DNA from: Tetraselmis striata
Taxonomy: Eukaryota; Chlorophyta; Chlorodendrophyceae; Chlorodendrales; Chlorodendraceae
Length of the DNA: 64,000 bases
NCBI GenBank assembly: GCA_006384855.1
Contig: VCJN01002409.1
Location: 1-64,000 of the forward strand
Direction: 5' to 3'
A program made the position numbers and the translations under genes. Positions 1 to 54,645 of this stretch are shown here, piece by piece; within the stretch, counting starts at the first letter, position 1; each line of letters opens with the position of its first letter. The notes under the pieces are model-generated. The model did not search any database. It was not told the DNA's origin and worked only from the letters and a program-made list of their open reading frames with translations.

Positions 1-3
1 ATT

Positions 4-85
4 GGCCTGCTCCGGTTCTTTTGGCCTGCTCCGGTTCTTTTGGCCTGCTCCAGTTCAACGACCTGCTCCAGTTCAACGGTTCAAC
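4..85 (+). repeat. Short tandem direct repeats in the Gypsy leader
   Basis: Four head-to-tail units share the core CCTGCTCC(G/A)GTTC. The first two are followed by TTTT and the last two by AACG. They lie before a purine-rich stretch containing TGGTAGGAGG, which could be a primer binding site for a tRNA ending in CCA, but this is only a guess because the 5' LTR end is not visible. Confidence 0.6.
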
Positions 86-448
86 GACGACAGGTGGTAG
101 GAGGGAGGCAGGGCGTGAGCCCGGGAGTGGGAAGGCGCCGGCTTCACAGTCGTGTGTCAGTGCCGGAGTGCACTTGGAGGGAGCGGCATCGCCGCCTGAG
201 GGCCCCGGCGAGGGTGACGGCTGGCGGGTGCTTGGCTCAGCTCGGTGCCAACCTCTTCGTGGCGGTGGTGTGGATCTGAGGTTCATCGGCACTGAGTTAT
301 ACCGGACGTTGGAACTGTTCGTGTATCGGCTTGAGACGGGTGTGCGCCGACGCCGGCGAGGCGACGCGGCAGCGTCCCTCAGATTTCTGAGGCCGCGTGG
401 ACGCAGCCCCACTTCTGAGCTTGAGGGCCCCGGCGTGGGCGACAGCCA

Positions 449-3400
449 GTGGACGCGCTGGAAAGCGCAGAGGGCGGCTTTGCCCTGGGCGACCTGTGGG
501 CAGCACTGGACGAGCTGGAGGAAGACCAGCTGATCGAGGAGGTCGTGGAGGGGCTGCTGAACGACGTAGACGCATCCAACCAGGAGGGTGAGGAGCGCGA
601 TCACGAGAACGCGTACGCATACAGCAGCAGCGAAGTAGAGGACAGCGGAGACGACGAGGACGAGCTCTACTTTTCCCCGCTGCCAACACGCAACCCTAGG
701 CGAGACACTTTGTACGGACACGCGTACTTTGTGGACGACGCAATGAGCGACGATGAGATGGAGCCGCGGAGGGGCAAGGGCTCCAACGGGAGGTTGTGGG
801 CGGGTCACGAGAAGGCGACCTCAGAGCACACGTTTGAGACGTGGAAGAACTCTACGGACTGTGCCATGGAGAAGGAGCAACAACAGGCGTTTGACCGCAA
901 CAGACCATTCAACGAGATCCACGAGGTTCACGTGCTGCGGAGCCGCATTCAGCCAAAGTACTTGGAGTCGCTAGAGACTACACTCATCAGCCGGGGCATC
1001 AAGTACGAGGACTCGAGGATCGCGCGGAGGCTGGAAGGCGCAGAACGGCTCGACTACTACCGCCGGTTGTTGGACGGCATGTGGGAGGAGCTCGTCAACA
1101 TCACCAAGCAGATCGAGCTGCATTCGGAGCGGTACAGCAAGTGCCATCGCTCGCCTGGTGAGACTGTGCGCGAGTTTCGCAATCTGTTGCTAACGCACAC
1201 CAGGGTCAAGAACCTGGTCACCGAGGAGACGACACGCATTGTGGAGATATCGCGCGTCAACGTGGAGTTCATCGAGCGGGCCTGGGACAAGACGCGTTTC
1301 AGCCCCCGCATCAAATTCGCACAACAACAACTCGTGGACTATACGATGGACACCCAGGTGGACAGGACCTGGGAGATGGCTGAGTGGCTCGACAAGCAGG
1401 AGCGTGGCAGCATTCACGTGCGCGCTCACTCGCGCGTCCAGAGCGGAGGCGGCAGGCGGGGTTTTGACCACGAGGAGCACAACAGCCGCGGTGGCGGTCG
1501 CGGCAGCAACAGCCGTGGTCGTGGAGGCAGCCACGGAGAGGGTGGCAACTACCATCGACGTGGAGGTGGAGGAGGTGATCGTGGAGGCGGGCGCACGGAG
1601 AGGAGCGCTTACGCCCGTGATGGAGATGATGGTGGGCGAGGCAGCCACGTCAATGAGGCAGGTTGCTATGGTTGTGGGTCGAAAGATCACTACAAGAGCG
1701 ACTGCCCTCTGTGGAGCAAGACGTGCTCTGAGTGTGGCAAGAAGGGCCACATTGCCAAGCGGTGCTGGAAGGCCAACCCTGATCTCCGTCCGGAGACCGC
1801 CATGGCAGCAACCAATCCCAGGGAGCACATCAGAGTGCGCGAGGAGCCCAAGAAGCCGGACCGCAAATCATGCATGATGTGTGGCAAGGATGCGGGCCAC
1901 ACAACTGAGGAGTGCGGGAAGCTGCGCAAGTTCGTTGCGAACCTGCAGGCGACAGACGGCCACGAACCCAAGCACCCGCCGCTCAACGGCTATGCTCAAG
2001 TCGTCGGCAGCGAGGAGGGCGAGGTGGTGGGGCTGGCAGCAGCCAGCCAGTTGCGCCCACAGCGTAAGAGCGCGGAGGCTCAACGCCATGGCGTCAACAC
2101 GGTGCGCATGGAGGACGGAGAACGTGAGGCCAGGCAGCGGAGGCTGCCTCGCGGCTTCACCACCCCATCGATGGAGATGGCGCAGCAAATGCACAGCCGT
2201 ACAGAGCTGACGGCGAAGCTCACCAGCGCAGCTCAGAGCGTCACGGTGCCTGTGTCACTGGCCAACGGCGGTGGACAGCCGCGCATGCCACTGATGGAGA
2301 TCGCCAAGCGGCTGGTCAAGCACGAGCCCGTGGAGGATGGCTGGGAGAAGCATGCTGTCATGCGTGCTCTGGAGAGCAAGCGAGTCTCCATCAGCCTGAT
2401 GGAGGCTTACCAGCTCGAGCGCAGCGGCGGCGGGATGATGGAGAGCGTCATGGCAACAGCATGGGGCGGCGGTGCCCTGAGTACCGAGCCGATCAGCAGC
2501 CACGCTCACTCAGCCAGGACCTCGAGCGGGGAGCGCGCCTTCGAGGCAGCGCTGATGATGGTGGAGGAGGTCGCTGACCAACAAAGCGGCGGCAAGTCTA
2601 CCGCGGAGGAGAAGACCGCTGGCGGAGAGGCTGAGACTGAACGGTCTTTTGCCATTTACCGGCCAGGTCAACTCGCGAGACAACGCGAGGAGGAGGAAGA
2701 TCGCAAGCGTGCAAATGCGCAGCGCAATGCCAGCACGGCGGTTGAGGAGGCATCAGTATGTCGCCGCAGCGGCAAGTGGGAACCCGCCATTGACTATCGA
2801 CGCAGTGCCACTGAGGCAGACATCAGGGAGCAAGCACTACGGCTGCCCAAAGGGTCTGAGACCCGACGCTGCCTGGAGCAGCAGGCGGAAGTCGCCCACA
2901 AGGGCATTTTTGCCCTTCAGCCCACGGGGGCTGAGGCGAAGGAGCAGCCGGAGACGGCTCGGCTTGACACCATCACGTGCGAGTTGCACGCCAACAATAC
3001 CCTGCTGCAGTGCGAGACCATTTCCGACGGCGGGAGCAGCCACACCCGCATGAACGCGTCAGCAATGGAACCAAGCGCGGCGGAGGCCGTGGTGAAGGGC
3101 GCTGGCGGGTGGGTGGACGTCGACATGGTGGTGGTGCTCGCCAATGGCAAGCGCTCATGCGAGCAACAACGACGATTGCGGGATGGCGTGGTCTTCACGC
3201 TTCGGGACCCCGTCACCTCAATCATGGCAGCTCATCACGCACCGCGCGTGTACGAGAATGGAGGCGAGGCACCGGGCTTGCTGCTCGGTGGACCCACCAT
3301 CACAGCCCTCGGGCTGCGACCGGACCCGGCGACCAGGATCTGCACTTTCCGCGCACCCAACCGACCGGCCGGCAGAGTGCCACTGCTCAGTCAAACGGCG

Positions 3401-3814
3401 TGGGAGCGGCGGGTACGCGAGCACCAACCTGTGGTGCGCGTGGAGAGAGCGAGCTACTGCCATGGGGTGGAGCTCGGCGATGATGAGATGGGGGAGGAGA
3501 GTGGGGGGGGCAGTGACGTGTCTCACAGCCACGCCGCCCACGAACCCTCACGGCGTGACGTGCAAGAGTCCAAGACTTGCGAGCCGGCAGACCTACCGCC
3601 TTTGCGGGAGGTGCAGAGCCTGCAGCGTCACGGGCTGGCGAGGCTGAGCACCCGCGAAGAGGGCATCAGCCTGTACGAGCCATGTGGCGGAGGCTACGTT
3701 GCCGTGTTGAATGCCATGCTGGCCAACGGCCAGAAGGTGGCCAGATACCGGCATTCGGACATCGACCCGGCAGCCCGCAAGGCCGCTGGGCAGCGTGTTC
3801 AAGGAGCTCAGTAG
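449..3814 (+). CDS. Gag-like polyprotein of the Gypsy element (zinc knuckles, protease-like region)
   Basis: A long open frame encodes about 1,120 residues. The first third is acidic then helical, as expected of a capsid/nucleocapsid precursor. A Gly/Arg-rich tract (about residues 335-395) leads into CCHC knuckles (CYGCGSKDHYKSDC, CSECGKKGHIAKRC) and a third related motif (CMMCGKDAGHTTEEC), which bind nucleic acid. A region with DGGSS and a downstream GLLLGGPTITALGL stretch resembles a retropepsin. The frame ends in a segment with YEPCGGG and a following HSDID, which resembles the SAM-binding motif I region of DNMT3-type enzymes. The frame overlaps the next one by about 100 bases; Ty3/Gypsy elements commonly use ribosomal frameshifting between gag and pol. 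The listed start is a GTG, so the true start is uncertain. Confidence 0.8.
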   Translation: MDALESAEGGFALGDLWAALDELEEDQLIEEVVEGLLNDVDASNQEGEERDHENAYAYSSSEVEDSGDDEDELYFSPLPTRNPRRDTLYGHAYFVDDAMSDDEMEPRRGKGSNGRLWAGHEKATSEHTFETWKNSTDCAMEKEQQQAFDRNRPFNEIHEVHVLRSRIQPKYLESLETTLISRGIKYEDSRIARRLEGAERLDYYRRLLDGMWEELVNITKQIELHSERYSKCHRSPGETVREFRNLLLTHTRVKNLVTEETTRIVEISRVNVEFIERAWDKTRFSPRIKFAQQQLVDYTMDTQVDRTWEMAEWLDKQERGSIHVRAHSRVQSGGGRRGFDHEEHNSRGGGRGSNSRGRGGSHGEGGNYHRRGGGGGDRGGGRTERSAYARDGDDGGRGSHVNEAGCYGCGSKDHYKSDCPLWSKTCSECGKKGHIAKRCWKANPDLRPETAMAATNPREHIRVREEPKKPDRKSCMMCGKDAGHTTEECGKLRKFVANLQATDGHEPKHPPLNGYAQVVGSEEGEVVGLAAASQLRPQRKSAEAQRHGVNTVRMEDGEREARQRRLPRGFTTPSMEMAQQMHSRTELTAKLTSAAQSVTVPVSLANGGGQPRMPLMEIAKRLVKHEPVEDGWEKHAVMRALESKRVSISLMEAYQLERSGGGMMESVMATAWGGGALSTEPISSHAHSARTSSGERAFEAALMMVEEVADQQSGGKSTAEEKTAGGEAETERSFAIYRPGQLARQREEEEDRKRANAQRNASTAVEEASVCRRSGKWEPAIDYRRSATEADIREQALRLPKGSETRRCLEQQAEVAHKGIFALQPTGAEAKEQPETARLDTITCELHANNTLLQCETISDGGSSHTRMNASAMEPSAAEAVVKGAGGWVDVDMVVVLANGKRSCEQQRRLRDGVVFTLRDPVTSIMAAHHAPRVYENGGEAPGLLLGGPTITALGLRPDPATRICTFRAPNRPAGRVPLLSQTAWERRVREHQPVVRVERASYCHGVELGDDEMGEESGGGSDVSHSHAAHEPSRRDVQESKTCEPADLPPLREVQSLQRHGLARLSTREEGISLYEPCGGGYVAVLNAMLANGQKVARYRHSDIDPAARKAAGQRVQGAQ

Positions 3815-6800
3815 GAGATATCCGGATCTACTACCAGCTAGCGCGATCAAGGGGTGGGACTCGTTTCCACAGGACATCACGGCGATCACAGCAGAGGACG
3901 TGAGGCGCCTGCCATACATAGACATAGTGGGGTGTGGATGGCCTTGCCCAGGCATGAGCAGAGCCAATCGCAACGCGCTGGGATTGCGCGACCGGAGGTC
4001 ACGTTTGCTCTTTCACGTGGCCGCGTTCATCGAGAAGCTCGAGGAGAAGCAGCCCACCGGCGTGGGATGGCTGCTGGAGAACGTGGATACGAGCGGAGAC
4101 GAGAGACTGTACATCAAAGAGTCTGAGAAATACATCACGAAGATCATCGGGAGAGCGCTCGTGATTGATGAGGCGGGCTGTGGAGCGAATCATCACCGAG
4201 TGCGACGATTCTGGACGAACATGGGGGACGTGGAGAGACTGAAGTTGGCGTGGGAGAGGCGGGCGGACATGCAGCCACGACTGCTGCGAGAGGTGCTGCC
4301 ACCGCACCTACGGCCGCATGTCAATCTGCCGACGCCACCCAACGGAGTTCGCGTCAACAAACCGGGGCAGCCACGCGCGTTGCCAACGATCTTGGCGCGA
4401 TCGGACTCAGATGCCTACTCCGGCGAGGGGGCCGGCATGTTGTTCAACATCAACACGGGCGAGTGGGAACGGCCCACTGTCCACCTGAAGGAGGAGCTTT
4501 TCGGTTACGAGCCGAACGTAATTCACGGCATATCGCTGCCGGACCATGAGCGCCTCATAGGCAATGCCATGGGTCTGCACAGCGTAGCGTGGATCGTCGG
4601 GCAGCTCTTCGTGGAGCAGCAGCGACTGAAGGACTTGGAGGAGCTGGAGCGCGCAGCTCGGGCTGCCCAGGCAGCTCAGCGCGCGGAACGAGAGAGACGA
4701 GAGCAACGCAGGATGCAGAGATCCTGCGGGAGAGCATGGCAGCAGCTGTGTCAACAGGGGCTATGCTGCTGGCTGCTGCTCATTGGGTTGGGCACCACGT
4801 CAATGCACTTCGGCGAGGCGAGTCGTCTCGGCAACACCACGGTGTTAGCCATGTTCGTGGCAGTGATGGTGCGCGCGAGCGCGCGCTACCGCCGCGAGGT
4901 GACGGCGACAAGCAGGGCGGGGCGCCGAGCTTTCGGCGCCAACGCCGTGTCGGACGGCGGCGGGACTGCGGAACGGAGTAGCGCTGCTGCGTGGGCCAAT
5001 CGTGGCTACACGCAGGCAAGTATGAATGATCACGTGGAGGATGTTCGTAGCCTGAAGGATCCTGAGAAACACTGGCGGTGCGGGCGCGAGTGCGAGGCTG
5101 CACAGCAACAACAGCTAGTGGAGCTCTGCGACAGCTTTTGGGATGACGTGTGGGTGTGGTCCGTCAGCGACCTACCGGCCGTCAACCACTGGGAGTTCAG
5201 GATACCGACGACCAACACGCAGCCCATCAAGCGACCCAAGTACCGATTGAGCAAGACTGAGTGGGACTTCGTGGACAGCTGGTGCAAGGAGCTGTTGGCA
5301 GCTGGGGCGATCCGCGAGAGCCAATCTCCCTACAGCATCCCAGTAGTGTGTCCACCGAAGAAGGACGACGACGGCAACTGGACCGGGATCCGGGTGTGTT
5401 TGGACGCTCGCCCGTTGAACAGTGTCACTGAGTCGTGGGCGTATTGTATGCCCAAGACAGACGAGCTACTCAGCAAGGTCGCAGGCGCGCGCATGTACAG
5501 CGGGTTTGACGCCAAGTCGGCGTTTCATCAGCTGCCCATCGCAGAGGAGGACCGACACAAGACTGCCTTTTGGGGCAGCGACCGGCAGTATGAGTGGTGC
5601 CGGATGGCGATGGGCTTCAAGAACGCCAGCCAAGCATGGCAGCGTGTCATGGATGAGGCCCTTGGCGATCTGCCGTTCGTGGCGGTTTACGCCGATGACA
5701 TCTGTGTCTTTTCAGGCGCAGCCGAGATGAGCGACGCTGAGGTGTTTCAGCAGCACCTTCAGCATTTGGAGACGGTGTTTCAGAGGCTCGCAACGGCGGG
5801 CATCAGACTGGCGCCCGGCAAGGGGCGCATGGCCGTGAGGCAGATTGCTTTCTTGGGCCATTGGGTCGACGGCGAAGGCGTATTCCCGCAGCACTCCAAG
5901 GTGGAGGCTGTGGTGAAGATGCCGCCGCCGACTGACGTTGCGGGGCTTCGGCGCTTCCTCGGCATGGTGGGCTACTACGGTAAGTTCATCGAGCAAGTTG
6001 CAGTCAAGCGCAAGCCGCTGACCAAGCTCACTGGCAAGGTGCCGTGGGAGTGGGGATCGGAGCAGCAACGAGCCTTCGAGCAGCTCAAGGCAGACCTGGT
6101 TTCGGCTCCCGTGCTGAGAAATCCGGATTGGAGCCGCCCTTTCATCCTGCACACCGATTTCAGCGGAGCTGGATTGGGCGCGGTGTTGGCGCAGGAGGAC
6201 GACGAAGGACAGGAGTACGTGGTGGAGTTTGCGAGCCGCACCTGCCAAGGCGCGGAGCCCAACTATGCCAGCTATGAGGGTGAGTGTCTTGCCATGTTGT
6301 ATGGCATGGACAAGTTCAGATACTATCTGTTTGGCAGGCAGTTTGTGGTGGTGACAGATCATCGGCCTTTGGAATGGCTGATGAACACCGCTCAGCTTCG
6401 TGGGAAGTTGGCGCGGTGGGCGATGAGGCTCAGCGAGTACGACTTCGTGGTACGCTATCGGAAGGGCGCTCACCACGTCAACGCAGATTGTCTGAGTCGG
6501 GGGCCCGTGGAGGGCGACCCAACGGAGCTGGATGGGCGCGGTGAGTTTTCACCGGAGGGCACCGTGCGACATGCGGCAGCCTTTTGGTGCGCAACGGCTC
6601 AGAGCAGCCGGCAGCCGGAGCTGTCAGCATGGGCGCGACGCCGCGTGCTGGACACCGCCCATGAGGGCACGGCCAACGGCGACTTGGTGGCGGTTACCGG
6701 CGAGCTGACGGCGGGACCGCGGAGAGGCGATCCGTGGATGGACGCGGAGGCGATGGCGGAGCTGCAGGCGGGCAACGTCAACATGCCGCAACCTTATGCC

Positions 6801-9026
6801 CGCTATACATGGAGAAACAACATCTTGTGGTATTTACACAAGGACGGCACGCACCGCGAGGTACCGCCACCCAGTGAGCGAGACACGGTGATTATGGATG
6901 TGCATGTCAAGATGGGCCATTTGGGGCGGGATCGGCTGCGCAGTGTTATCGCCGCTTCATATTTCTGGCCAGGGATGGTGGAGGATGTAGCCCGAGTCAA
7001 GAAGGCGTGTCCGGACTGCGATCGGCTGCAACATCGACCCGGCGGCACCAGCGGTCGCCCAAAGGCAGCCTCACCGCTGGACATGCAGCCGCTGCCGCAC
7101 TTCGGCATGTTCTACCGCTGGCACTTGGACTTGGCGGGGCCTTTTGAGGCCACCCGCAGTCGCAATGTCTGGGTGTTGGTGATGGTGGAAGCGGCGAGCA
7201 AGTGGGTGGAGTTGGTGCCGCTGCGCACCAAGGAGGCAGCCAACATACGACAAGCCTTTCAAGAGAGAGTGCTGGCGCGTTTCGCGGCGCCAGGCGAGGT
7301 GTGTACCGACGGCGGTACCGAGTTCAGCGGCGAGTTCCACGAGCTTCTCGTGGAGCATGATATCGATCATCCGAAGCCGCTGCCCTATCATCCGCAGCCC
7401 AATGGGTTGGCGGAAGGGATGGTGAAAACAGTCAAGGAGGCACTGATGCGCTATGTGGTTCAGCCCGGCAAGCGCGTCGTGTGGGACACTTTTCTGCCTT
7501 CCATCGAGCTGGGCTACCGTTGCAGCAAGCAAGCCAGCACCAAGTACAGCCCATACGAGTTGGTGTACGGCAGGGCACCCGTGTTTCCCGCGCAGGCGAG
7601 AGCGCTCTTTGAGGAGAGCGCCGTGGACTTCAACAGCCCGGAGGGCATGTGGGAGCTGATGACAGTGCGCGCGGAGCGTTTGGCGCTCATGGTGCCGACG
7701 GCGATGCACAACGTGGAAGCGGCGCAGCATCGTGAAGTGATGCGCTATCGCAGGAGGCGCGCGGGGTTGGTGGCGCCCGGAGTGCAACGCTTCAGCCCCG
7801 GCGACTTCGTCTACGTGCAACAGCGGCAGCAAGACGCGCTCGATCCACGAGTGCGACCGGCTGTCTACAAGGTTTACGAGGTGAACGACAACGGAGTGGT
7901 GGTCATCCAAGGAGCTGACGGCGACACGGCGCGCGTGCGCGTTGAGGAGCTGGCGCGGTGCGCCGTTCCATACGTGGTGTTGCCGGCAGGATTTGAAGAC
8001 CCAAATATGGCGTGCGAGGAGTGCGACGAGCGCGTCAGCACCCAGCGCAACCCGATCATCATCTGCGAAGACTGTGAACGAGGCTGGCACAAGTTGTGTC
8101 ATCAGCCACCTGTGGCACGTGTGCCGCGGGGGGCATGGCGGTGTGCGGAGTGCAGCGCTGATGACGCAGCGTTGCCGGCACAGTGGACATCGGTGGCTTT
8201 AGCCGCCACAACAATCAGTGACAACGACGACAGCGACGAGGAGATTCAAGACCCTGCCCCGCCTTTGCAGCCGACAAGAGCGGCAGTGGCAGCAAGACTG
8301 AACTGGGGCATGCCTGGCGCCTGGCACCCAGCAACTGTGGCAAGAACGATGAACAACCTTCAAGCAGCCAATGACTATCTACCGGCAATCAGTAACCAAG
8401 TGAGCGAGTACGCTGCGCTAGCCAACGTGATCAGCTGGCGCGGCCGAGTAATCTTTGATCCGTGGGCGGGACATGGCAGCACCGCTGAGGCCTTGCGGCC
8501 GTGCGGTGCGACAGTGATCAACAACGACTTCAATCCGGTGTACCAAACTGAGATGTGCGAGGACGCGCTGGAATCCTTTGTGTACCAGTGCGCTCGCGAT
8601 GTAACCGCAACCGTGGCGATGACGACGATGATGACGACGACGATGACGACAACGATGATGACAACACAGCCGCGGTTAGAGGCCCCTTTCATAGTGGTGA
8701 CCTCCCCGTGGTTCCAACTACTTGATCTGGCGCTGCCAATCATGGCGTCATGCGCGGACATCCTTTTCGTGCAAGTACCAATCTACTACATCGCGCAGGG
8801 ACCTTCCCCGCGCATGCAGTGGCTACGGCATCTAGGCGACTGTGGGCGGCTCCACATTATTGCCGGCGACATGCAGCGTAACCGCACTACGCGCCGATCA
8901 ACCCTGTGGCTCGCGGTCTTCCGCGACAACGAGCTGCGAGAGCGAGAACTGCGAGCTGAGTGGCGTCACTCCGTGGCGTCAATTCACTTCCACACCGAGG
9001 CGTGCGCTGGCGACCAGCATCACTGA
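3711..9026 (+). CDS. Pol-like polyprotein: DNMT segment, RT, RNase H, integrase, PHD finger, methyltransferase-like C terminus
   Basis: An open frame of about 1,770 codons. Early motifs match C5-cytosine methyltransferases: GCGWPCPGMS (motif IV, catalytic Pro-Cys), LLENVDTS (motif VI), RVRRFWTN (motif VIII) and ERLIGNAM (motif X). Then come reverse transcriptase (FDAKSAFHQL, VAVYADDICVF), RNase H (ILHTDFSGAGLGAVL, VVTDHRPLEWL), the integrase zinc-binding HHCC region (HLGRDRLRS ... CPDCDRLQ) and catalytic core (HLDLAGPF, TDGGTEFSG, YHPQPNGLAEG). After it lies a Cys4-His-Cys3 PHD finger (CEECDE ... ICEDCERGWHKLC ... WRCAEC). The last 200 residues contain FDPWAGHGSTAEAL and VVTSPWFQLLDLAL, resembling motif I and motif IV of Rossmann-fold methyltransferases. 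Family functions are known for RT, RNase H and integrase. Self-methylation or chromatin targeting by the added domains is inference. Confidence 0.88.
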   Translation: MPCWPTARRWPDTGIRTSTRQPARPLGSVFKELSRRYPDLLPASAIKGWDSFPQDITAITAEDVRRLPYIDIVGCGWPCPGMSRANRNALGLRDRRSRLLFHVAAFIEKLEEKQPTGVGWLLENVDTSGDERLYIKESEKYITKIIGRALVIDEAGCGANHHRVRRFWTNMGDVERLKLAWERRADMQPRLLREVLPPHLRPHVNLPTPPNGVRVNKPGQPRALPTILARSDSDAYSGEGAGMLFNINTGEWERPTVHLKEELFGYEPNVIHGISLPDHERLIGNAMGLHSVAWIVGQLFVEQQRLKDLEELERAARAAQAAQRAERERREQRRMQRSCGRAWQQLCQQGLCCWLLLIGLGTTSMHFGEASRLGNTTVLAMFVAVMVRASARYRREVTATSRAGRRAFGANAVSDGGGTAERSSAAAWANRGYTQASMNDHVEDVRSLKDPEKHWRCGRECEAAQQQQLVELCDSFWDDVWVWSVSDLPAVNHWEFRIPTTNTQPIKRPKYRLSKTEWDFVDSWCKELLAAGAIRESQSPYSIPVVCPPKKDDDGNWTGIRVCLDARPLNSVTESWAYCMPKTDELLSKVAGARMYSGFDAKSAFHQLPIAEEDRHKTAFWGSDRQYEWCRMAMGFKNASQAWQRVMDEALGDLPFVAVYADDICVFSGAAEMSDAEVFQQHLQHLETVFQRLATAGIRLAPGKGRMAVRQIAFLGHWVDGEGVFPQHSKVEAVVKMPPPTDVAGLRRFLGMVGYYGKFIEQVAVKRKPLTKLTGKVPWEWGSEQQRAFEQLKADLVSAPVLRNPDWSRPFILHTDFSGAGLGAVLAQEDDEGQEYVVEFASRTCQGAEPNYASYEGECLAMLYGMDKFRYYLFGRQFVVVTDHRPLEWLMNTAQLRGKLARWAMRLSEYDFVVRYRKGAHHVNADCLSRGPVEGDPTELDGRGEFSPEGTVRHAAAFWCATAQSSRQPELSAWARRRVLDTAHEGTANGDLVAVTGELTAGPRRGDPWMDAEAMAELQAGNVNMPQPYARYTWRNNILWYLHKDGTHREVPPPSERDTVIMDVHVKMGHLGRDRLRSVIAASYFWPGMVEDVARVKKACPDCDRLQHRPGGTSGRPKAASPLDMQPLPHFGMFYRWHLDLAGPFEATRSRNVWVLVMVEAASKWVELVPLRTKEAANIRQAFQERVLARFAAPGEVCTDGGTEFSGEFHELLVEHDIDHPKPLPYHPQPNGLAEGMVKTVKEALMRYVVQPGKRVVWDTFLPSIELGYRCSKQASTKYSPYELVYGRAPVFPAQARALFEESAVDFNSPEGMWELMTVRAERLALMVPTAMHNVEAAQHREVMRYRRRRAGLVAPGVQRFSPGDFVYVQQRQQDALDPRVRPAVYKVYEVNDNGVVVIQGADGDTARVRVEELARCAVPYVVLPAGFEDPNMACEECDERVSTQRNPIIICEDCERGWHKLCHQPPVARVPRGAWRCAECSADDAALPAQWTSVALAATTISDNDDSDEEIQDPAPPLQPTRAAVAARLNWGMPGAWHPATVARTMNNLQAANDYLPAISNQVSEYAALANVISWRGRVIFDPWAGHGSTAEALRPCGATVINNDFNPVYQTEMCEDALESFVYQCARDVTATVAMTTMMTTTMTTTMMTTQPRLEAPFIVVTSPWFQLLDLALPIMASCADILFVQVPIYYIAQGPSPRMQWLRHLGDCGRLHIIAGDMQRNRTTRRSTLWLAVFRDNELRERELRAEWRHSVASIHFHTEACAGDQHH

Positions 9027-9076
9027 GCGTCGATTGGCGCCCAGCGGCCGTTCACCCTTCTGGCGACCAACCGTCT

Positions 9077-9087
9077 GGGGGGGGGGG
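9077..9087 (+). other. Putative polypurine tract of the Gypsy element
   Basis: A run of G directly upstream of the sequence TGGGCCGCCC, 50 bases after the pol stop. The position and purine content fit second-strand priming in LTR elements. The downstream TG would be the first bases of the 3' LTR. Confidence 0.45.
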
Positions 9088-9790
9088 ATGGGCCGCCCAT
9101 TGAGCTGGTGACAGCGCCCCACGCGGGAATGCGAGCATGCGACGGCAGCTGCCGCAGCATCCGTCATATCCGCGTGCGCGTGAAGAACGGGACAGCCAAG
9201 CCCTTCCGGGCCGGCTAGGGTTAAAGCTAGGGTTCCATACCCGGTTGAGACCACAGGCAGGGCACCTGATTGGTTAGGGTTCCATACCCTGGCCATAGCC
9301 CTGAGCGAGGCGCAAGGAGACATACATACCGGAGATCAGAGACCCGCCCAAGCACACCTAGGCGGGACTTCTAAGGGAACTCAGATAGCACCTCTAATCG
9401 GGACCTCTAACAGGGACCCCTAAGGTGGACTACCTGCAGAAGACGAAGTACTGTACTGCTGCTGGTACAAGGCGCAAGACTCACTGTAGCCGCAGCCGAG
9501 TAGTAGTATAGGACTTGATGAGTACAATTAGACAAGGGCAGTGCGTAATGCGTCTGGCGCGCGGTGCGCGCACGGCGCGCGTGCTATTAGCACTTAGCGT
9601 GACGTGCGGCTGCCTTGCCATGGCTGCGATCGCGTGCTTATAGAGGGCCTCCGCCTTCTAGCGGTCCCTCTTCCCCCTTGTCTTGCCTGTGTGTGCCTGT
9701 GTTTGCCTATGACAGGCATAGGCAAGAGCCTGTGTACGGGACGGAGACGGTGTAAGAGACGGAGATCGGCTTGAGGAACGAGGGCCAAAG
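9088..9790 (+). repeat. Putative 3' LTR of the Gypsy element (right end not defined)
   Basis: Non-coding DNA following the polypurine run. It contains two copies of TAGGGTTCCATACCC about 50 bases apart, a TATA-like CTTATAGAG near 9639 followed by a pyrimidine-rich stretch, and a perfect hairpin at 9703-9725. This is consistent with U3-R-U5, but without the 5' LTR in the window neither the right border nor a target duplication can be confirmed. Confidence 0.4.
9703..9725 (+). other. Perfect 9-bp hairpin in the putative LTR
   Basis: TTGCCTATG and CATAGGCAA pair perfectly around a five-base loop. It sits about 65 bases after a TATA-like sequence, where a transcript from the LTR would begin, so it could be an RNA structure in the R region. 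Function is unknown. Confidence 0.5.
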
Positions 9791-10100
9791 GTAATCACGG
9801 TAGCCTGCGTGCTTGTCGTACGGTCGCACGCGTGCTGCCCGCTGCATCGTGCGCGCGCGCTGCTGGTGGTGCTGGGTTGTCACCATTCGACCCGGTACCG
9901 ACGTAAAGTACTGTAGGAACGGTTGATAGCCGCGACCAGCACTGCATAAAGTACTGCACGGCGTGGCAGTGACCTGTGGTGAGAGGCTTCATTGCCACTG
10001 GCATTCACCCCCCTGAGTACGGGCAAGACCAGCAACGCTGGTCTGAACTAAAGCCCTATAGGCGTCTGAGAGGTGCCTGTAGTGACTTAGGTTCGCGTTC

Positions 10101-10160
10101 ATGGGCCGCCCATTGAGCTGGTGACAGCGCCCCACGCGGGAATGCGAGCATGCGACGGCA
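10101..10160 (+). repeat. Second copy of a 60-bp direct repeat (first copy 9088-9147)
   Basis: The 60 bases from ATGGGCCGCC to GCGACGGCA are identical to 9088-9147, the presumed left end of the 3' LTR. The sequences diverge immediately outside. It may be a fragment of another LTR of the same family, or a sequence the element picked up. Confidence 0.85.
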
Positions 10161-46065: not shown

Positions 46066-46107
46066 GGTTATGGGCCCTCCTAGCCTCACAGCGTCGCTTC
46101 CCGCTGT

Positions 46108-49100
46108 GTGCTCCGTCTCGTCGCGCCGCGCCCGCCTGCACGGCGCGCCCTCCTGGCCCTGTCGCCCGGTTTTTCCGTGAGCGTTTGTATGTCCGACAGC
46201 CCGCCCCCGCCGCCGCCAGGCGCAGGCGGATCCTCCGACCAGTGGCCCGCACTCGGTCAGTCCTTTGGCCCCCTGTCCCCTGCCTCATGGGGGCAAGTCA
46301 GCTCCGCAGCGGCACAGCGCGCCGTGCAGATCCAGCAAGCTGCCTCAGCCGAGCAGATGTCCCAGATGGTCGCGGAGATGCGCACCATCGCGCACGATGC
46401 TGCCACTGCCGCCACCCGCGCGGTAGTGCAGGAGCTGCGCCAGCCCTCGCTCTCGCCCAAGCCTGACCCAGGCGACACAGCACACCATGCCGCCACGTCC
46501 GCCCCTGCTCCTGCTCTGGTTCCTGCTCCCATGCCGCCCCCGCTCTCTCCTGGTTCCCTTGGTGACGATCTTGGCGCTCTCCCTGTCGCGCCCCCTCGCC
46601 AGCTCGGCGCGCATGACCTTGGCCGCTCCCTCAAGACCGCTCTCTCCCAGTTCTCGACAACTGACTCCTGGCCCATCTACCGCGACGATTTCCTCGCCCA
46701 CCTGACGACTGTCAACCCTGTCCTTGTCGCTGTCCTCCTTGGGGCTCGTCCACCAGCACACGGCCTCACCGCGGAATCGTTCAGTCTCTTGCAGCAACAG
46801 CTCTCCGCCACGCTCACTGTTGTCATGAAGTCTCATCCGACGGCTGCCACACGCCTCCGGAACTTGAGGCGCTCGGACACCTTCGCTGCCGCCGACAATC
46901 CCGGCACCCTGGCTTGGGACCAGCTGTGCACACACCTCGACCGCCGAGGCGTGGCTCGCACTGTGCGCCACCTTTTGGCTCTCCAGCAGCCGCAGTCCCC
47001 GTCTGAGGATCAGGGGGCCTTCACCCAGCGCATGCTGAACGCCTATCACGAGCTCAACGACAGCCCTGTCTCCCTGCACTCCAACGTGCTCCACGAGAAC
47101 GTGCTCGTCGCTGCTACCCTCGATGGCATGCACAACACAGTCGCCAGAGACACCATACTCTCCGCCCTCGACGCAGCCGAGACTCGGGCGGAGGACATCT
47201 CCTACGGCCGCCTGTGCGACATGATGCACCGCCACCCAACGACTCCCGACAGCAAGCCAACCCGCCCCGGCCAAGACGTTGCCGCCTTCGCTGCGGCTAT
47301 GCACACTCAGCTGCACTCGCAGGTGGAGGCTGCGGTCGTCGCCGCTATGGCCCGTGCCCCCCCTCCGGCTCGACCCCCCTACGCTCGTCCCCCCCGTGGT
47401 GGCCCGCAGAACAACGCCCGGCAGCATCCGCCCACGACCCCGTGCCGCATCTGCGAATCAAAAGGGCAGGGCAAGCGTTTCCACTGGCATGCGCACTGCC
47501 CCCTGAACCAGGCTCCGGCTGCGCCAACTGCTGCGCCGCCTCCTGCCCCTGCCACTCATCAAGCTGTTGTTTCTCCCGTGTCGGCTGCATCGGCGTTTTC
47601 CGATGAACTCTCCCACATGATGGCCTTCCTCGGCAACCCGGACAGCGCAGCTCCTAACGCCATGATGGCACATGCGGGGCCGAGTGGCATCCATGCTGGT
47701 TTCCTTTCGGTATTCTGTGGGAAGGCCGCCGCCCCGCTCCCCGTCGCCGCCTCCGGCATGTTTCTTGTCGACGGTGGTGCCAACATCTGCATGGAACCCG
47801 ACGTCTCGCGCTTCCGCGCCTACTCCCCCTTGACCACCCCGGTCCCGTGCTCTGGCCTCGGCGTTGACATCCTCGGCTTTGGCTCAATTGACATCTCCGT
47901 TGTCTACTCCGATGGTGTCAGCCGCCCCCTGACAGTGCGCGCGGCACACGCCCCCGGCATGACAGCCAGGGGCGCTCCTACCATCCTCTCTCAGGAATAC
48001 CTTCGTCGCGAGCACGGCGTCAGCTTCTCGTATCCTGCTCGAGGGGCGCCCTCCGCCACGGACTCTCACGGCTCCCTTGTCCTCACCATGGTCAATGACC
48101 TGCCCTTTCTCACCGGTGGCCACGCCGAGTCTCCTGGTGCGGCCCCTCCATCTGCGTGCCTTGCCTACAAGGGCCCGCCTGAGTCGCCGCCTGATGCCCA
48201 TCGCTTGCACCTTCGCCTCGGCCACCCTGGCAGGGACGGCATGAAGGCCTTGCTTCGCTCGGAGTCCGTCGTTGGTGTTCCTGCTGCTGCGGATGCTGCC
48301 ATGCCAGACTGCGAGCCCTGCATCATGGGCAAGTTGCGACACGCTAGCGTCTCTCGCGCTCCTGCCAGCGTTGTTCAGCCGTTCTCGGCTTTTAGCTCTG
48401 ATGTCTTCGGTCCCATGGATGTCCCCGGGGTAGGTGGGGCCAAGTTCCTCCTCGGTGTAATCGATCACTACTCCAACTACATCTGGCTCGCTGCCCTCTC
48501 CTCAAAACGAGATATCATCACCCAGCTTCGCCTCGTCCTGCTGCAAATTCGCACCATCTGCTCGAAGGCCGGTCAGCGCCGCTTTGCCCCGTCCATCAAG
48601 TTTGACTGTGACCCCAACTACCTCGATACGGCCTGCCGGTCCATGGTTCGCGAGTGTGGCTTCTCTGATAGGTTCACTGCCCCATACGCTCACCACCAAC
48701 TCGGTCGCGTCGAGCGTCGTTGGGGGAGTCTGGGTCAGCGAGCAGTCTGCCTCATGCAACATAGCCACGCGCCTCGCCGGTTCTGGGGGCTCGCCATGCG
48801 TCATTCTGCTTTCCTTGCGAACAGGCTTCCGTCGCCGACGGCGGCCAACGGTGCTGGTGGAGTGCCCTATTGCCTCCTCCACGGCGTCCCGCGAGTCGAT
48901 CTCAGTGACCTCCGTGTGTTCGGCTGCATTGCCTACCTCCGTCTTGAGGACCGCTTTCATCTCAAACTCGAGCCCCGCGCTCTCAAGTGTATGCTGGTTG
49001 GTCAGTGCGATGACGGCCCAGGCTATTGGCTGTATAATCTCCAGTCCGGCCGCGTCATTCGCTCCGTCCACGTTGCCTTCCTCGAGGGGATTCCGGCCCA

Positions 49101-50922
49101 TGCGCCTCCGCCGTCCACCCCAGCCGACGTGCCCCCATGTGCTCATCTCGCCGGTCCCTCCCAGGACGCGGCTCGCTTCGCTAGCCCTTTCGCGGCGGCT
49201 GCAGCCACAGCTACGCCGGTCTTCTCCCGTCCTACCAAGCGCCCCGCGCCTCCGGCCAGCCCGGCCTCCGATTGGCATGAGCTAGACGCCTCGCCGGTAC
49301 CTCCTGCCGTCGCTCCGGGTCAGTATCCTCCAGCGTCCCGCATCCCGGTGCCTGACACCATCAAGCAGGCACTTGCTGGCAAATACCACAAAGAGTGGCG
49401 CGCATCTATCGTCAGTGAGCTCCGCTCCCTCCGCGCTCGGAACACCTTTGCCTACGCCCGTCTCCCGGTGGGACGGCATGCTATCGGCAACAAATGGGTC
49501 TTTAAGGTCAAGGCCAACTCCGATGGCAGCGTCAACAGGTTCAAGGCCCGCCTAGTGGCTCAGGGTTTCAGCCAGCAAGCCGGGGTGGACTACCACGCCA
49601 CTTTCTCCCCCGTCGTCAAGCTCAGCACCCTCCGCACGTGTCTGGCCGTGGCCGCTGCCCGCGGCATGCACATCCACCAGATCGACATTGAGACAGCCTT
49701 CCTGAACGCCTCCCTCAAAGAGGAGATCTACATGCGACAACCTAAGGGCGCCGAGGATGGCACGGACAACGTCCTTCGCCTCCTCAAGAGCATCTACGGT
49801 CTCAAACAAGCCTCCCGGGAGTGGTATGAGCTCATCCACAAAACGCTCACTGGTCTTGGCCTTGCGCGCTCCAACTCCGACACCAGCATGTACAGCATGA
49901 ACCACCCACGGTACGGCATCTGCATCGTCCTTGTGTATGTGGATGACATCCTCGTCGTCTCCGACTCTGTTGAGTGGATCCGGTCAGCCAAGTCCGCAAT
50001 TGGTGCTGAGTTCAACATGACCGACTTCGGGGAGGCCGCCTTCGTCCTGGGCATGGACCTCACTCGTTGCTGGGCTTCCGGCACCATCCGACTATCCCAG
50101 GAGCAGTACACGCTCGAACTGTTGGAGAAGTACGGCATGCAGGACTGCTCCCCGGCCAAGACCCCCATGGGCAGTGGCCACTACAAAGATCTTGCCAGCG
50201 CCAGCGACGCCGACAAGGCCCCGCTCTCCCGCGAGGACCATGAAACGTATCGCGCCATCCTGGGCTCTGTCAACTTCCTCACGATGTGCACCCGACCGGA
50301 CCTCGCCTTTGCTATCAGCGTCCTCAGCAGGTTTCAGTCTGCCCCGCAGAAGATCCACCTCATGCAGCTCAAACGGGTACTCCGCTATCTCAAGGGCACC
50401 CCTGGCATGGGCATCACCTACGGAGCCACTGAACCGGGGGGGGCTCTCCTCGTAGTCTACTCAGACTCCGACTGGGCCGCTGACACCAGCAACCGGCGCT
50501 CTCAGTCCGGTGACATCAGCATGCTCAATGGTGGTGCCATTGGATGGAACTCCAAACAACAAGAGACCACAGCGCTCTCCACCACCGAGGCTGAATACGT
50601 TGCCCTCAGCAGAGCGGCACAGAACACTGTGCACTTCAGGCAGCTGCTGCAAGACATCCACCAACAGCAACAAGGGCCCACCATTGTCTATGAGGACAAC
50701 CAGGGAGCAGTCAAACTTGCCAACAATCCCATGGCTTCGCACAGAACCAAGCACATCGACATCAAGCATCATTACACTCGAGACCTAGTGGATGCTGGAA
50801 CGATCTCTGTCACCCCCATCGCTACAACAAAGATGCTGGCCGATGGGCTCACCAAAGCCTTGCCTGAACCCACCCACACACTGTTGTTTAGACAATGCAT
50901 GGGCACTAAGTCAACTGTATGA
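46108..50922 (+). CDS. Copia gag-pol polyprotein
   Basis: One frame of about 1,604 codons; MSDSPPPPPP, about 27 residues in, is a plausible alternative start. Visible parts: a Pro/Ala-rich gag with a CRICESKG ... HWHAHC knuckle near 47.45 kb, protease (MFLVDGGANICME) near 47.77 kb, integrase (HLRLGHPGRDGMKALL, FSSDVFGPM, YSNYIWLAAL) at 48.2-49.1 kb, reverse transcriptase (NKWVFKVKANSDGSVNRFKA, QIDIETAFLNASL, LVYVDDILVV) at 49.5-50.2 kb and RNase H (YSDSDWAADTSNRRS, STTEAEYVALS, ADGLTKALP) at 50.45-50.85 kb. These are standard Copia signatures. Gag and Pol share one frame, as is usual for many Copia elements. Confidence 0.95.
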   Translation: MLRLVAPRPPARRALLALSPGFSVSVCMSDSPPPPPPGAGGSSDQWPALGQSFGPLSPASWGQVSSAAAQRAVQIQQAASAEQMSQMVAEMRTIAHDAATAATRAVVQELRQPSLSPKPDPGDTAHHAATSAPAPALVPAPMPPPLSPGSLGDDLGALPVAPPRQLGAHDLGRSLKTALSQFSTTDSWPIYRDDFLAHLTTVNPVLVAVLLGARPPAHGLTAESFSLLQQQLSATLTVVMKSHPTAATRLRNLRRSDTFAAADNPGTLAWDQLCTHLDRRGVARTVRHLLALQQPQSPSEDQGAFTQRMLNAYHELNDSPVSLHSNVLHENVLVAATLDGMHNTVARDTILSALDAAETRAEDISYGRLCDMMHRHPTTPDSKPTRPGQDVAAFAAAMHTQLHSQVEAAVVAAMARAPPPARPPYARPPRGGPQNNARQHPPTTPCRICESKGQGKRFHWHAHCPLNQAPAAPTAAPPPAPATHQAVVSPVSAASAFSDELSHMMAFLGNPDSAAPNAMMAHAGPSGIHAGFLSVFCGKAAAPLPVAASGMFLVDGGANICMEPDVSRFRAYSPLTTPVPCSGLGVDILGFGSIDISVVYSDGVSRPLTVRAAHAPGMTARGAPTILSQEYLRREHGVSFSYPARGAPSATDSHGSLVLTMVNDLPFLTGGHAESPGAAPPSACLAYKGPPESPPDAHRLHLRLGHPGRDGMKALLRSESVVGVPAAADAAMPDCEPCIMGKLRHASVSRAPASVVQPFSAFSSDVFGPMDVPGVGGAKFLLGVIDHYSNYIWLAALSSKRDIITQLRLVLLQIRTICSKAGQRRFAPSIKFDCDPNYLDTACRSMVRECGFSDRFTAPYAHHQLGRVERRWGSLGQRAVCLMQHSHAPRRFWGLAMRHSAFLANRLPSPTAANGAGGVPYCLLHGVPRVDLSDLRVFGCIAYLRLEDRFHLKLEPRALKCMLVGQCDDGPGYWLYNLQSGRVIRSVHVAFLEGIPAHAPPPSTPADVPPCAHLAGPSQDAARFASPFAAAAATATPVFSRPTKRPAPPASPASDWHELDASPVPPAVAPGQYPPASRIPVPDTIKQALAGKYHKEWRASIVSELRSLRARNTFAYARLPVGRHAIGNKWVFKVKANSDGSVNRFKARLVAQGFSQQAGVDYHATFSPVVKLSTLRTCLAVAAARGMHIHQIDIETAFLNASLKEEIYMRQPKGAEDGTDNVLRLLKSIYGLKQASREWYELIHKTLTGLGLARSNSDTSMYSMNHPRYGICIVLVYVDDILVVSDSVEWIRSAKSAIGAEFNMTDFGEAAFVLGMDLTRCWASGTIRLSQEQYTLELLEKYGMQDCSPAKTPMGSGHYKDLASASDADKAPLSREDHETYRAILGSVNFLTMCTRPDLAFAISVLSRFQSAPQKIHLMQLKRVLRYLKGTPGMGITYGATEPGGALLVVYSDSDWAADTSNRRSQSGDISMLNGGAIGWNSKQQETTALSTTEAEYVALSRAAQNTVHFRQLLQDIHQQQQGPTIVYEDNQGAVKLANNPMASHRTKHIDIKHHYTRDLVDAGTISVTPIATTKMLADGLTKALPEPTHTLLFRQCMGTKSTV

Positions 50923-53010: not shown

Positions 53011-54645
53011 CTTGGAAGGAATTCCCGGATGTTACCACGCCAAATATAAAGGTGAAGCGATTCAGCGATTGTCCCATTTGCGCGGCGGGCAAAGCGCCCA
53101 GAGACCAAGCTCGCGAGATTTGCACAAAGGATATGACGCCAAAGGAACGTCAAATGCACTGTTAACATTAGCAATTCGTGAGGCGTCAGGTCACATCCGA
53201 GCAGGAGGTCCACCTCGAGAGAGTGCGCCAGGAACGAAGGGATGTGAACAACGCCGTCTTCTAGTCGCGCCTTGGCCATGGAAACTTCTTCTTCTTCGAA
53301 ATTGATAGCATGGACTCTGCGAAGACCCTGCTGCCTCACTAGGTTAGCATCTCCAAGACTGTGAAGCCCGACATGCTCCTCAAGTATATCACCTCACTTG
53401 TGTGAAATACGACGGCTACTGCCCATCTACTACATCTGCGGCATCTACTACTACACAACACCATCCCCCATGATTCGTCCACGACTGCACTCTGAAATGG
53501 ATCACGATCATGAAGGTGAGCTCGTTCTTGTCCTCCCGACAGATTCGTTGTGGTTGCCCGGTAGCCGTGGACGGATGAAGTTTGATCTGCGATGCAGGAA
53601 ATTCAACTCCGTGACAAAAAGATTCCGTACATCAGAATCCGGATGGACAACACCGATAGGGAGAACAAGAATAGGAACGTGGCGGCCCTCTGCAATTGGC
53701 TTGTGTCTATCGGCATCTGCGACGTCATTCATTTGGTCTTCATGCATGTCGGGCACACGGGCTGACCAGATCTTCAACCGCATAGGTCTTGCGTTATCTC
53801 GCAGCTCCGCCTACACAGTCGAATCCTTTCTTGACTTGGTTGCGAAGGCATTCTCGCCCACTCCAGAGATTGCAGAGCTTTCATTCTCCCTCGACTTCTC
53901 TGAGTGGTTAAAGCCCCATTTCCAAGACCACATCCAGGACATGAGTAAGCCGCACAAATTCGAGTTCACCCATGATGACGCCGCCGCGGCTGGCGGCTCG
54001 TTGCGCACCGCCTTGTGGTCCAACACATCGCTTTCCGAGCCCGTGCAGATCTTGAAGAGCGCGCCAAGTGAGACGCCCGAGATTCGTGCGGGCCGGCCCC
54101 TTTTGTACGCTCTCTGCGACAACTAAGAAGAAGCCTGACGCGTTGAAGATCCAGAGGTCCTTGGATGACTTCAAAGAGGTCAGGTCGTACATCACGGACC
54201 TAGCGATCCAGGGACACTTCTCCCTGGTCGAGCGCGAGAGCTGGAAGAATCTACTCGACGACTTGGATGAGATGCAAACTGCTCCTTCGGCAGCTTTCTC
54301 CGGGTTCAGGCCGCAACGGAAAGAGGAAATAGACGACTTCTTGCTTGAGCATGGGCAGACCGAGCCCGCTGAGGCACGTCACACGATGGCTACCAACGCC
54401 GACATCAAGAATGCCGAAGCTACTCATCGCGTCGAAGCCGAGGTTCGAGCTCAAGTGCTTCAAGATGACAGCGCCTTTTAGGGAGTTCACGCCGGCGCCA
54501 AGGAGATCATTCACGACAACACATCGCCCAGCGATGCAAAGCACACGAACCTCGTGGTCATCGACGTCTCCGATGTGAGTCCCATTGTTTGTCATTTTTG
54601 TCCTTTACGGGACAAAACAATTTGGTGTATTACCTTGATTGTTAT

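What the first reader, a model, noticed from the sequence alone, without database searches (positions are those of the whole stretch)
3660..4650. DNMT3-like cytosine methyltransferase segment inside a Ty3/Gypsy element
Motifs GCGWPCPGMS, LLENVDTS, RVRRFWTN and ERLIGNAM appear in the expected order, preceded by a YEPCGGG motif-I-like stretch, between the protease-like region and reverse transcriptase. Capture of DNMTs by retrotransposons has been reported in charophyte algae and dinoflagellates, with the proposal that elements methylate their own DNA. If this genome is another lineage, it would be a further or a shared capture. The placement before RT is worth comparing with the known cases.
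Basis: partly seen in the sequence, partly recalled or inferred. Interest (0 to 1): 0.9.

Follow-up and report, generated by a model that had tools for sequence, protein, structure and literature searches.

The report
Algal retrotransposon carrying DNA methyltransferases
A jumping element in the genome of a green alga (best match Tetraselmis striata) carries a gene part resembling animal DNMT3 DNA-methylating enzymes, split across two overlapping reading frames, plus a histone-reader-like domain and a second enzyme-like domain of the methyltransferase type; if the enzymes work, the element could chemically mark its own new DNA copies.

Summary
Window 3659 to about 4622 encodes a DNMT3-class C5 methyltransferase (MTase1) between a protease-like region and the reverse transcriptase of a Ty3/Gypsy-type element in a Tetraselmis genome (JGI Tetstr1 gene models up to 100% identical; 224-Mb assembly). 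(1) MTase1 is not in one frame: motifs I-II end ORF1 (425-3814), the rest starts ORF2 (3711-9026), joined only by a +1 shift. The junction is free of indels in 10 of 10 fetched young copies, and a separate relative (MTase1 70% identical) has the same overlap, so programmed frameshifting inside the enzyme is likely. (2) After the integrase come a PHD finger and a second class-I methyltransferase-like domain (MTase2), also found in another repeat family of this genome. (3) The element has split direct repeats (A1-ORFs-B1-A2-B2) as in DIRS elements, but TG...CA ends and 4-bp target duplications (8 of 8), fitting its DDE integrase. (4) It belongs to a broad family (140 protein hits; ten of 120 listed bear green-algal names), mostly with MTase1 between RNaseH and integrase. 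KnitGypsy-Dnmt3 of Klebsormidium is the published precedent, so this is a new variant. Enzyme activity and self-methylation are untested; CpG depletion is absent.

The parts
425..3814 (+). ORF1: Gag-like with CCHC knuckles, protease-like DGGSSHT, and at its end MTase1 motifs I-II
   Evidence: open frame 1129 aa; PF00098 two stretches, 23.2 bits; relative P0022 49% identical overall, ends at the same place
1661..1915 (+). zinc-knuckle region (CCHC at about 1661-1708 and 1724-1765, and a third C-rich motif 1871-1915)
   Evidence: PF00098; third motif read by eye
2990..3394 (+). aspartic-protease-like region (DGGSSHT at 3026-3046)
   Evidence: by eye, DGGSSHT conserved in P0022; no Pfam match, so inferred
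3659..3805 (+). MTase1 part 1 in ORF1 frame: motif I (ISLYEPCGGG) and motif II (YRHSDIDP)
   Evidence: 78% identical to P0022 over 49 aa; ORF1 part alone scores 46.9 bits with the family profile
3797..3814 (+). inferred +1 frameshift zone GTT CAA GGA GCT CAG TAG; best-scoring shift after CAA (3802), near ties after GTT and GGA
   Evidence: indel-free in 10 of 10 young copies and in 8 of 10 diverged copies
3711..9026 (+). ORF2: MTase1 part 2 - linker - RT - RNaseH - integrase - PHD - MTase2
   Evidence: open frame 1771 aa; 21 full-length copies listed in the genome, window included, 14 of them without stops
3930..3959 (+). MTase1 motif IV GCGWPCPGMS, catalytic Cys codon 3945-3947
   Evidence: Cys in 120 of 120 aligned family domains with a letter there
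4071..4094 (+). MTase1 motif VI LLENVDTS
   Evidence: EN in 121 of 121 domains
4197..4220 (+). MTase1 motif VIII RVRRFWTN
4548..4571 (+). MTase1 motif IX/X region ERLIGNAM
5355..5864 (+). reverse transcriptase (YADD)
   Evidence: PF00078 81.6 bits
6051..6440 (+). RNase H
   Evidence: PF17917/PF17919
6864..7370 (+). integrase: H2C2 zinc-binding and DDE core
   Evidence: PF17921, PF00665
8013..8153 (+). PHD finger
   Evidence: PF00628 26.8 bits, cut-off 24; located in 98 of 139 proteins laid out
8325..8996 (+). MTase2: class-I methyltransferase-like domain; motif I DPWAGHG 8457-8477, motif IV-like SPWF 8703-8714
   Evidence: 68% identical in P0008; homologues in 46 of 141 proteins searched; 8 of 13 members match PF02086 at E<=1, best 1.8e-4, window member none; second repeat family in the same genome, E 3e-30
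9077..9087 (+). run of 11 G directly before B1 (polypurine-tract-like)
9088..9147 (+). repeat B1 (60 bp, ends ...GACGGCA)
   Evidence: exact match to 10101-10160
9150..10100 (+). repeat A2 (951 bp, begins TGCCGCAGC); its partner A1 would lie left of the window, which starts at base 1 of its contig
   Evidence: A1 found at the left end of other copies; 0 of 951 mismatches to A2 in two of six copies
10101..10160 (+). repeat B2, right end of the element (...GGCA)
   Evidence: the same end carries the 4-bp duplication in other copies

Best explanation
This is a young Ty3/Gypsy-type retrotransposon with split direct repeats. It is read as Gag-protease ending in a stub of a DNMT3-class methyltransferase, and, after a +1 ribosomal frameshift inside that enzyme, as Gag-Pol with a complete MTase1, RT, RNaseH, integrase, PHD finger and a second methyltransferase-like domain. 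Because only Gag-Pol contains a whole MTase1, the enzyme would be made at pol levels and carried in the particle with RT and integrase, where it could put 5-methylcytosine on the double-stranded cDNA before integration; the PHD finger would help choose or read chromatin at the insertion site, and MTase2 may add a base N-methyl mark. Shown: anatomy, conserved frame overlap, termini with 4-bp duplications, recent copies, DNMT3-class sequence and fold. Inferred: frameshifting itself, catalysis, cDNA as substrate, all roles of PHD and MTase2.
For: DNMT3 class. Frame overlap: 10 of 10 fetched young copies have the 72-nt junction without indels (8 identical, 2 with one substitution); 8 of 10 diverged copies have no indel in the junction block; relative P0022/P0008 fits only a +1 overlap (1 of 36 placements); a profile of 119 other members scores +1 after CAA best (221.4 bits, against 215.7 for the best -2, and 159.9 for ORF2 alone); the predicted helix across the junction lies in blocks of mean pLDDT 86-91. 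Recent activity: 14 of 21 listed full-length ORF2 copies lack stops; A1 and A2 differ by 0-5 mismatches (and 0-36 gap columns) in six copies. Termini: 8 of 8 copies with both ends have a 4-bp duplication. Constraint: MTase1 pN/pS 0.14 with 2 nonsynonymous and 6 synonymous variable sites in 8 copies, integrase 0.18, linker 1.51.
Against: No CpG depletion (0.98 element, 0.95 rest of window, 0.89 copia ORF). Counts behind pN/pS are small, and MTase2 gives 0.48 (2 syn, 3 nonsyn). Only 14 of 44 aligned MTase2 domains keep both motif I and motif IV, so it decays in many relatives. MTase2 of the window matches nothing significantly by itself. In most family domains the residue before the catalytic Cys is Glu (81 of 120, Pro in 30), though not here. 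In the published work KnitGypsy-Dnmt3 gave no detected methylation in yeast, which the authors call inconclusive (PMC5890265). ORF1 is full length in only 3 of 10 fetched pieces. No RNA, protein or methylation data were available here.
Confidence: 0.6

Rival explanations
1. The two frames are a chance indel or a sequencing error in a dead copy, and the methyltransferase is a broken relic.
For: The domain is indeed interrupted in the window; the longest + frame is shorter than 1129 aa in 7 of 10 fetched upstream pieces.
Against: Same junction without indel in 10 of 10 young copies and in a separate relative; 14 of 21 full-length ORF2 copies without stops; WPCPG codons intact 10 of 10.
Confidence: 0.03
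2. The frames are joined by something other than ribosomal frameshifting (a small intron, RNA editing), or MTase1 is made as two polypeptides that associate.
For: Several T. striata gene models jump over the region, apparently by predicted introns (sequences, mapped). Nothing here measures translation.
Against: A +1 fusion restores the family residues on both sides (Arg in 107 and Leu in 102 of 113 domains with letters); gag/pol +1 shifts are known from Ty1 and Ty3 (recalled).
Confidence: 0.15
3. The methyltransferases do not mark the element's own cDNA: they act on RNA, on competing elements or host DNA, or serve as SAM- or nucleic-acid-binding modules without catalysis.
For: No CpG footprint; Glu-Cys instead of Pro-Cys in most relatives; one or both MTase2 motifs lost in 30 of 44; MTase2 also sits in another repeat family.
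Against: Here Pro-Cys, Glu-Asn and motif VIII are all intact; DNMT3 is a DNA enzyme class.
Confidence: 0.3
4. MTase1 of this element was captured independently of the MTase1 that lies between RNaseH and integrase in the wider family, rather than moved within one lineage; the donor could be a host or a virus.
For: Long branch (1.59) separating window+P0008 from the rest in the MTase1 tree; different position in Pol. Phage methyltransferase profiles match MTase1 (phrog_116 E 6.6e-9), so a viral donor is not excluded.
Against: The two kinds match each other better (E 5.2e-12, 64 bits) than the window matches DNMT3A in PDB (21.9 bits); the RTs fall inside the family in midpoint-rooted trees; PHD and MTase2 are shared at the same place. 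The integrase tree does not group P0142 with the window.
Confidence: 0.3

Closest known systems
KnitGypsy-Dnmt3 (Klebsormidium nitens; de Mendoza et al. 2018, PMC5890265; parts 1-3 of 7 read, and passages)
   Same: Dnmt3-related domain inside the Pol ORF of a Gypsy element; repeats arranged as in DIRS elements; conserved key residues and purifying selection reported there
   Different: Host is a charophyte; no PHD, second methyltransferase or frameshift inside the enzyme in the text I read (term PHD absent from the main text; figures not held). Domain order could not be compared.
SymbioDIRS-Dnmt3 and SymbioLINE-Dnmt (same paper)
   Same: Retrotransposons that encode cytosine methyltransferases; SymbioDIRS-Dnmt3 active on CG in yeast
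   Different: DIRS or LINE class with tyrosine recombinase or endonuclease, not a DDE integrase
DIRS/PAT-like elements with Dam-like N6A methylases (mentioned in PMC5890265)
   Same: Split direct repeats A-ORFs-B-A-B; a base N-methyltransferase in a retrotransposon
   Different: Tyrosine recombinase and no target duplication (the latter recalled); here DDE integrase, TG...CA ends, 4-bp duplication
ParB plus N4C/N6A methyltransferase proteins of algal DNA transposons (PMC12477816 passages)
   Same: Accessory amino-methyltransferase in an algal mobile element, proposed to modify its own DNA
   Different: DNA transposon, different architecture
DNMT3A/B catalytic domain
   Same: Motif order, Pro-Cys, Glu-Asn, HRxRxFWxN, fold
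   Different: Low identity (13-17% in the fold alignments shown); encoded in a retrotransposon across a frame change

Membership tests
DNMT3-class C5 methyltransferase | Motifs I, IV, VI, VIII, X in unrearranged order with catalytic Pro-Cys | tested here: met
   (order needs the +1 junction)
DNMT3-class C5 methyltransferase | Closest class by sequence profile and by fold among solved structures | tested here: met
   first 29 rows each DNMT3; 50 of 50 rows shown
DNMT3-class C5 methyltransferase | Position inside the DNMT3 clade in a tree with eukaryotic DNMTs | not tested
   no set of eukaryotic DNMT sequences was retrieved
DNMT3-class C5 methyltransferase | DNA cytosine methylation | not testable with these tools
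   -
Ty3/Gypsy LTR retrotransposon | Pol order RT-RNaseH-integrase with DDE integrase | tested here: met
Ty3/Gypsy LTR retrotransposon | Aspartic protease | tested here: inconclusive
   DGGSSHT by eye, no Pfam match
Ty3/Gypsy LTR retrotransposon | Two identical simple LTRs | tested here: not met
   A1 without B at the left, B1-A2-B2 at the right
Ty3/Gypsy LTR retrotransposon | TG...CA ends and short target duplication | tested here: met
   8 of 8 copies with both ends fetched, 4 bp
DIRS-like element | Split direct repeats | tested here: met
DIRS-like element | Tyrosine recombinase instead of DDE integrase | tested here: not met
   PF17921 and PF00665 found in ORF2
KnitGypsy-Dnmt3 | Dnmt3 domain in Gypsy Pol with DIRS-type repeats | tested here: met
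   against the text
KnitGypsy-Dnmt3 | Same lineage by RT and DNMT tree | not tested
   no sequence named as Klebsormidium retrieved
Base amino-methyltransferase (N6A/N4C) for MTase2 | Motif I DPxxGxG and motif IV (D/N/S)PP(Y/F) | tested here: inconclusive
   DPWAGHG and SPWF in the window; SPPF in P0050; both motifs kept in 14 of 44
Base amino-methyltransferase (N6A/N4C) for MTase2 | Significant profile or fold match | tested here: inconclusive
Programmed +1 gag-pol frameshift | Overlapping frames conserved between copies and between separate elements | tested here: met
Programmed +1 gag-pol frameshift | Measured frameshifting | not testable with these tools

The most novel reading that the evidence does not exclude
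A widespread family of green-algal Gypsy-type retrotransposons marks its own cDNA with two different base modifications (5mC by a DNMT3-class enzyme and an N-methyl base by MTase2) and reads chromatin through a PHD finger; in the Tetraselmis branch the DNMT3-class active site is put together only by the gag-pol frameshift, so methylation is tied by translation to the particles that carry RT and integrase.
Probability: 0.25. Interest if true: 0.92.

Novelty: new variant of a known kind. Interest (0 to 1): 0.78.

Why it matters
De Mendoza et al. reported retrotransposon DNMTs in dinoflagellates and one charophyte; PMC9998398 found no DNMT3 in any green alga of MMETSP (passage). Here a DNMT3-class enzyme sits in a large retrotransposon family whose organism-named members are green algae (140 protein hits, ten of the 120 listed with green-algal names, one under a bacterial MAG), so capture looks old or repeated rather than exotic. 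A methyltransferase cut by the gag-pol frame change is a built-in test of whether activity is needed in the particle. Split repeats with a DDE integrase, TG...CA ends and 4-bp duplications give a testable case for how such repeats are copied without a tyrosine recombinase. Copies are near identical and the host belongs to a culturable genus (recalled), so self-methylation can be asked directly with long reads.

Tried and rejected

Considered and rejected: a broken copy (junction conserved); a -2 shift (5.7 bits lower than +1); a plain LTR pair (no B beside A1). Not settled: several diverged copies appear as one-frame matches 1-346 or 1-243 with 2-11 stops; in the pieces I looked at, C1513, C2762, C1799, C2602 and C2786 have no indel in the junction block, so these look like alignments carried across a stop, while C868 has two 1-nt deletions and C2091 a 7-nt insertion in the block and C644 a 1-nt deletion upstream of it. 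The MTase1 tree support for window+P0008+P0142 is only 0.725 and the integrase tree places P0142 elsewhere. P0022 and P0008 are taken as one contig only because both carry the contig length 8999. Literature: absence of a report on this family rests on searches of an open-licence library (listings, with passages of three papers); most subscription papers and bioRxiv are not held there.
Full report
Observation. The window begins inside a retrotransposon. ORF1 (425-3814, 1129 aa) and ORF2 (3711-9026, 1771 aa) overlap by 104 bases in frames that differ by +1. Pfam finds zinc knuckles in ORF1 and RVT_1, RNaseH, H2C2 and rve integrase, a PHD finger, and DNA_methylase PF00145 (21.5 bits on the whole ORF2, cut-off 22; 24.8 bits on the domain alone) in ORF2.

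Host. A protein search with the MTase1 region gave 13 hits, 10 of them gene models of Tetraselmis striata (JGI Tetstr1, up to 100% identical; one cluster of 53 members). The window is contig C1944, bases 1-64000, of an unnamed 224-Mb assembly in 2903 contigs. T. striata is a chlorophyte of class Chlorodendrophyceae. The species name rests on the gene-model match.

What MTase1 is. By sequence alone the ORF2 part matches DNMT3A/B/C in rows 1-29 of 45 in PDB (best E 7.9e-4). A four-member profile gives DNMT3 in rows 1-29 of 59 (best E 1.3e-11), then DRM, HaeIII/HhaI and DNMT2; an eight-member profile gives DNMT3 in rows 1-29 of 60 (best E 5.9e-20). The AlphaFold2 model of the domain read across the junction (pTM 0.67, mean pLDDT 60; four sequences) finds DNMT3 structures in all 50 rows shown. 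PHROGs phage methyltransferase families also match (E 6.6e-9 and 5.9e-7). Over 121 family domains (129 minus 8 T. striata gene models) the catalytic Cys is present in 120 of 120 with a letter, Glu-Asn of motif VI in 121 of 121; the residue before the Cys is Pro in 30, Glu in 81, others in 9. The window has Pro.

Frame junction. In 10 of 10 fetched young genomic copies the 72-nt junction is free of indels (8 identical, 2 with one substitution), and WPCPG is intact. In 10 diverged copies the junction block is indel-free in 8; C868 and C2091 carry indels there. A profile built from 119 family members without the window and P0008 scores +1 after CAA at 3802 best (221.4 bits), +1 after GTT 220.6, after GGA 220.0, best -2 215.7, ORF2 alone 159.9 and ORF1 alone 46.9. 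I read this as a programmed +1 frameshift within the enzyme; the slip codon itself is not fixed, and no translation was measured.

Rest of Pol. Between the window and P0008/P0022, identity is Gag 45%, protease region 53%, MTase1 motif I-II 78% and remainder 70%, RT 89%, RNaseH 92%, integrase 84%, PHD 67%, MTase2 68%. The C-terminal domain MTase2 has DPWAGHGS, VINNDFNP and VTSPWF. It has no Pfam match itself; among 13 aligned homologues 8 match MethyltransfD12 (best E 1.8e-4), 4 UPF0020 and 2 N6_N4_Mtase at E<=1. A profile against PDB lists 21 rows, 19 of them methyltransferases, none significant (best E 0.066). The two-sequence AlphaFold2 model is weak (pLDDT 51); its nearest structures are N6-adenine methyltransferases such as KsgA and Erm, not significant. 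I call it methyltransferase-like, probably of the base amino kind; the base is unknown.

Wider family. Among the 139 proteins laid out (all retrieved except P0001, the copia ORF P0003 and P0024), the commonest orders are RT-MTase1-integrase-PHD (50) and the same plus MTase2 (21). RT and MTase1 were both located in 101; MTase1 comes first in 7 (P0002, P0004, P0005, P0006, P0010 of T. striata, P0008 and P0142). An iterated MTase2 profile reaches 46 of 141 proteins, and 14 of 44 aligned domains keep both motifs. RT-RNaseH trees of 89 sequences join window, P0008 and P0142 with full support; the MTase1 tree does so weakly (0.725) and the integrase tree does not.

Ends and repeats. A 60-bp repeat recurs exactly at 9088-9147 and 10101-10160. 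In other copies the 951-bp A repeat stands at the left end without B, and B1-A2-B2 at the right, the arrangement of DIRS elements. Yet A1 begins TGCC and B2 ends GGCA, and 8 of 8 copies with both ends fetched have a perfect 4-bp duplication (GGTG, GTGT, GGAG, TGTT, GTAG, CGAC, GGAA, CAGC); two of the ten fetched pieces lacked A1. B1 and A2 are joined by GC (CA-GC-TG) in 9 of 9 fetched copies that have A2. C1431 ends at B1 and still has a duplication, so an A-ORFs-B form integrates too; C2631 has an internal deletion. I infer that the internal B1-A2 stretch supplies both end sequences during reverse transcription, as proposed for DIRS repeats (recalled).

Age and constraint. 21 full-length ORF2 copies are listed, 14 without stops (lower bounds). 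A1 and A2 differ by 0, 0, 2, 3, 3 and 5 mismatches, with 0, 0, 10, 0, 13 and 36 gap columns, in six copies. In eight ORF2 copies pN/pS is 0.14 for MTase1 (6 syn, 2 nonsyn sites), 0.00 RT, 0.28 RNaseH, 0.18 integrase, 0.13 PHD, 0.48 MTase2, 1.51 for the linker. Numbers are small. A full 1129-aa ORF1 frame is found in 3 of 10 fetched upstream pieces.

How it may work. Gag with a motif-I stub would be the major product; Gag-Pol, made by the shift, has whole MTase1 with RT and integrase. The simplest use is methylation of the cDNA in the particle. Against a CpG-specific use, CpG observed/expected is 0.98 over 1-10160 and 0.95 in the rest of the window. MTase2 is also present in a second repeat family of the genome (L040 ORF 4173-4871, E 3e-30), which speaks for a mobile accessory role.

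Known or new. KnitGypsy-Dnmt3 (PMC5890265; text parts 1-3 of 7 and passages) is the precedent for a Dnmt3 domain in a Gypsy Pol with DIRS-type repeats. [quoted passage not shown] I found no paper on the chlorophyte family, the frame change within the enzyme or the second domain in searches (listings). I rate it a new variant of a known kind.

Noticed in passing
L040 (C616:127500-133542) 4173-4871, and L041; about 45 places listed: A second, high-copy repeat family of this genome carries an MTase2 homologue as a separate frame (232 aa in L040; DPCSGF...TSPWF), downstream of a 799-aa frame without Pfam match.
   Followed up: partly
own genome contig C2237, about 9751-30412: Six MTase2 hits spaced about 4.0 kb apart on one strand, each with one TAG: probably a tandem array of part of the element.
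   Followed up: no
L018/L019 (C1431 copy): Insertion ending at B1, without A2-B2, but with a perfect 4-bp duplication (TGTT): a second integrated form.
   Followed up: partly
window 46084-50922: Long Ty1/Copia-type polyprotein frame, 1612 aa (RVT_2 222.7 bits).
   Followed up: no
window 53365-54126: Frame matching DUF7869 (46.1 bits).
   Followed up: no
P0073, P0074, P0083 (family members): Some relatives also list a G-patch domain; in P0083 it lies between MTase1 and integrase.
   Followed up: no
P0091; L001: A family member is filed under a Minisyncoccia bacterial MAG, probably algal contamination; a 26% identical MTase1-like stretch lies in a Devosia MAG.
   Followed up: no
window 4611-5150, residues 301-480 of ORF2: Between MTase1 and RT lies a linker with a charged stretch and two hydrophobic segments (by eye) with pN/pS 1.51 (2 syn and 10 nonsyn sites).
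   Followed up: no
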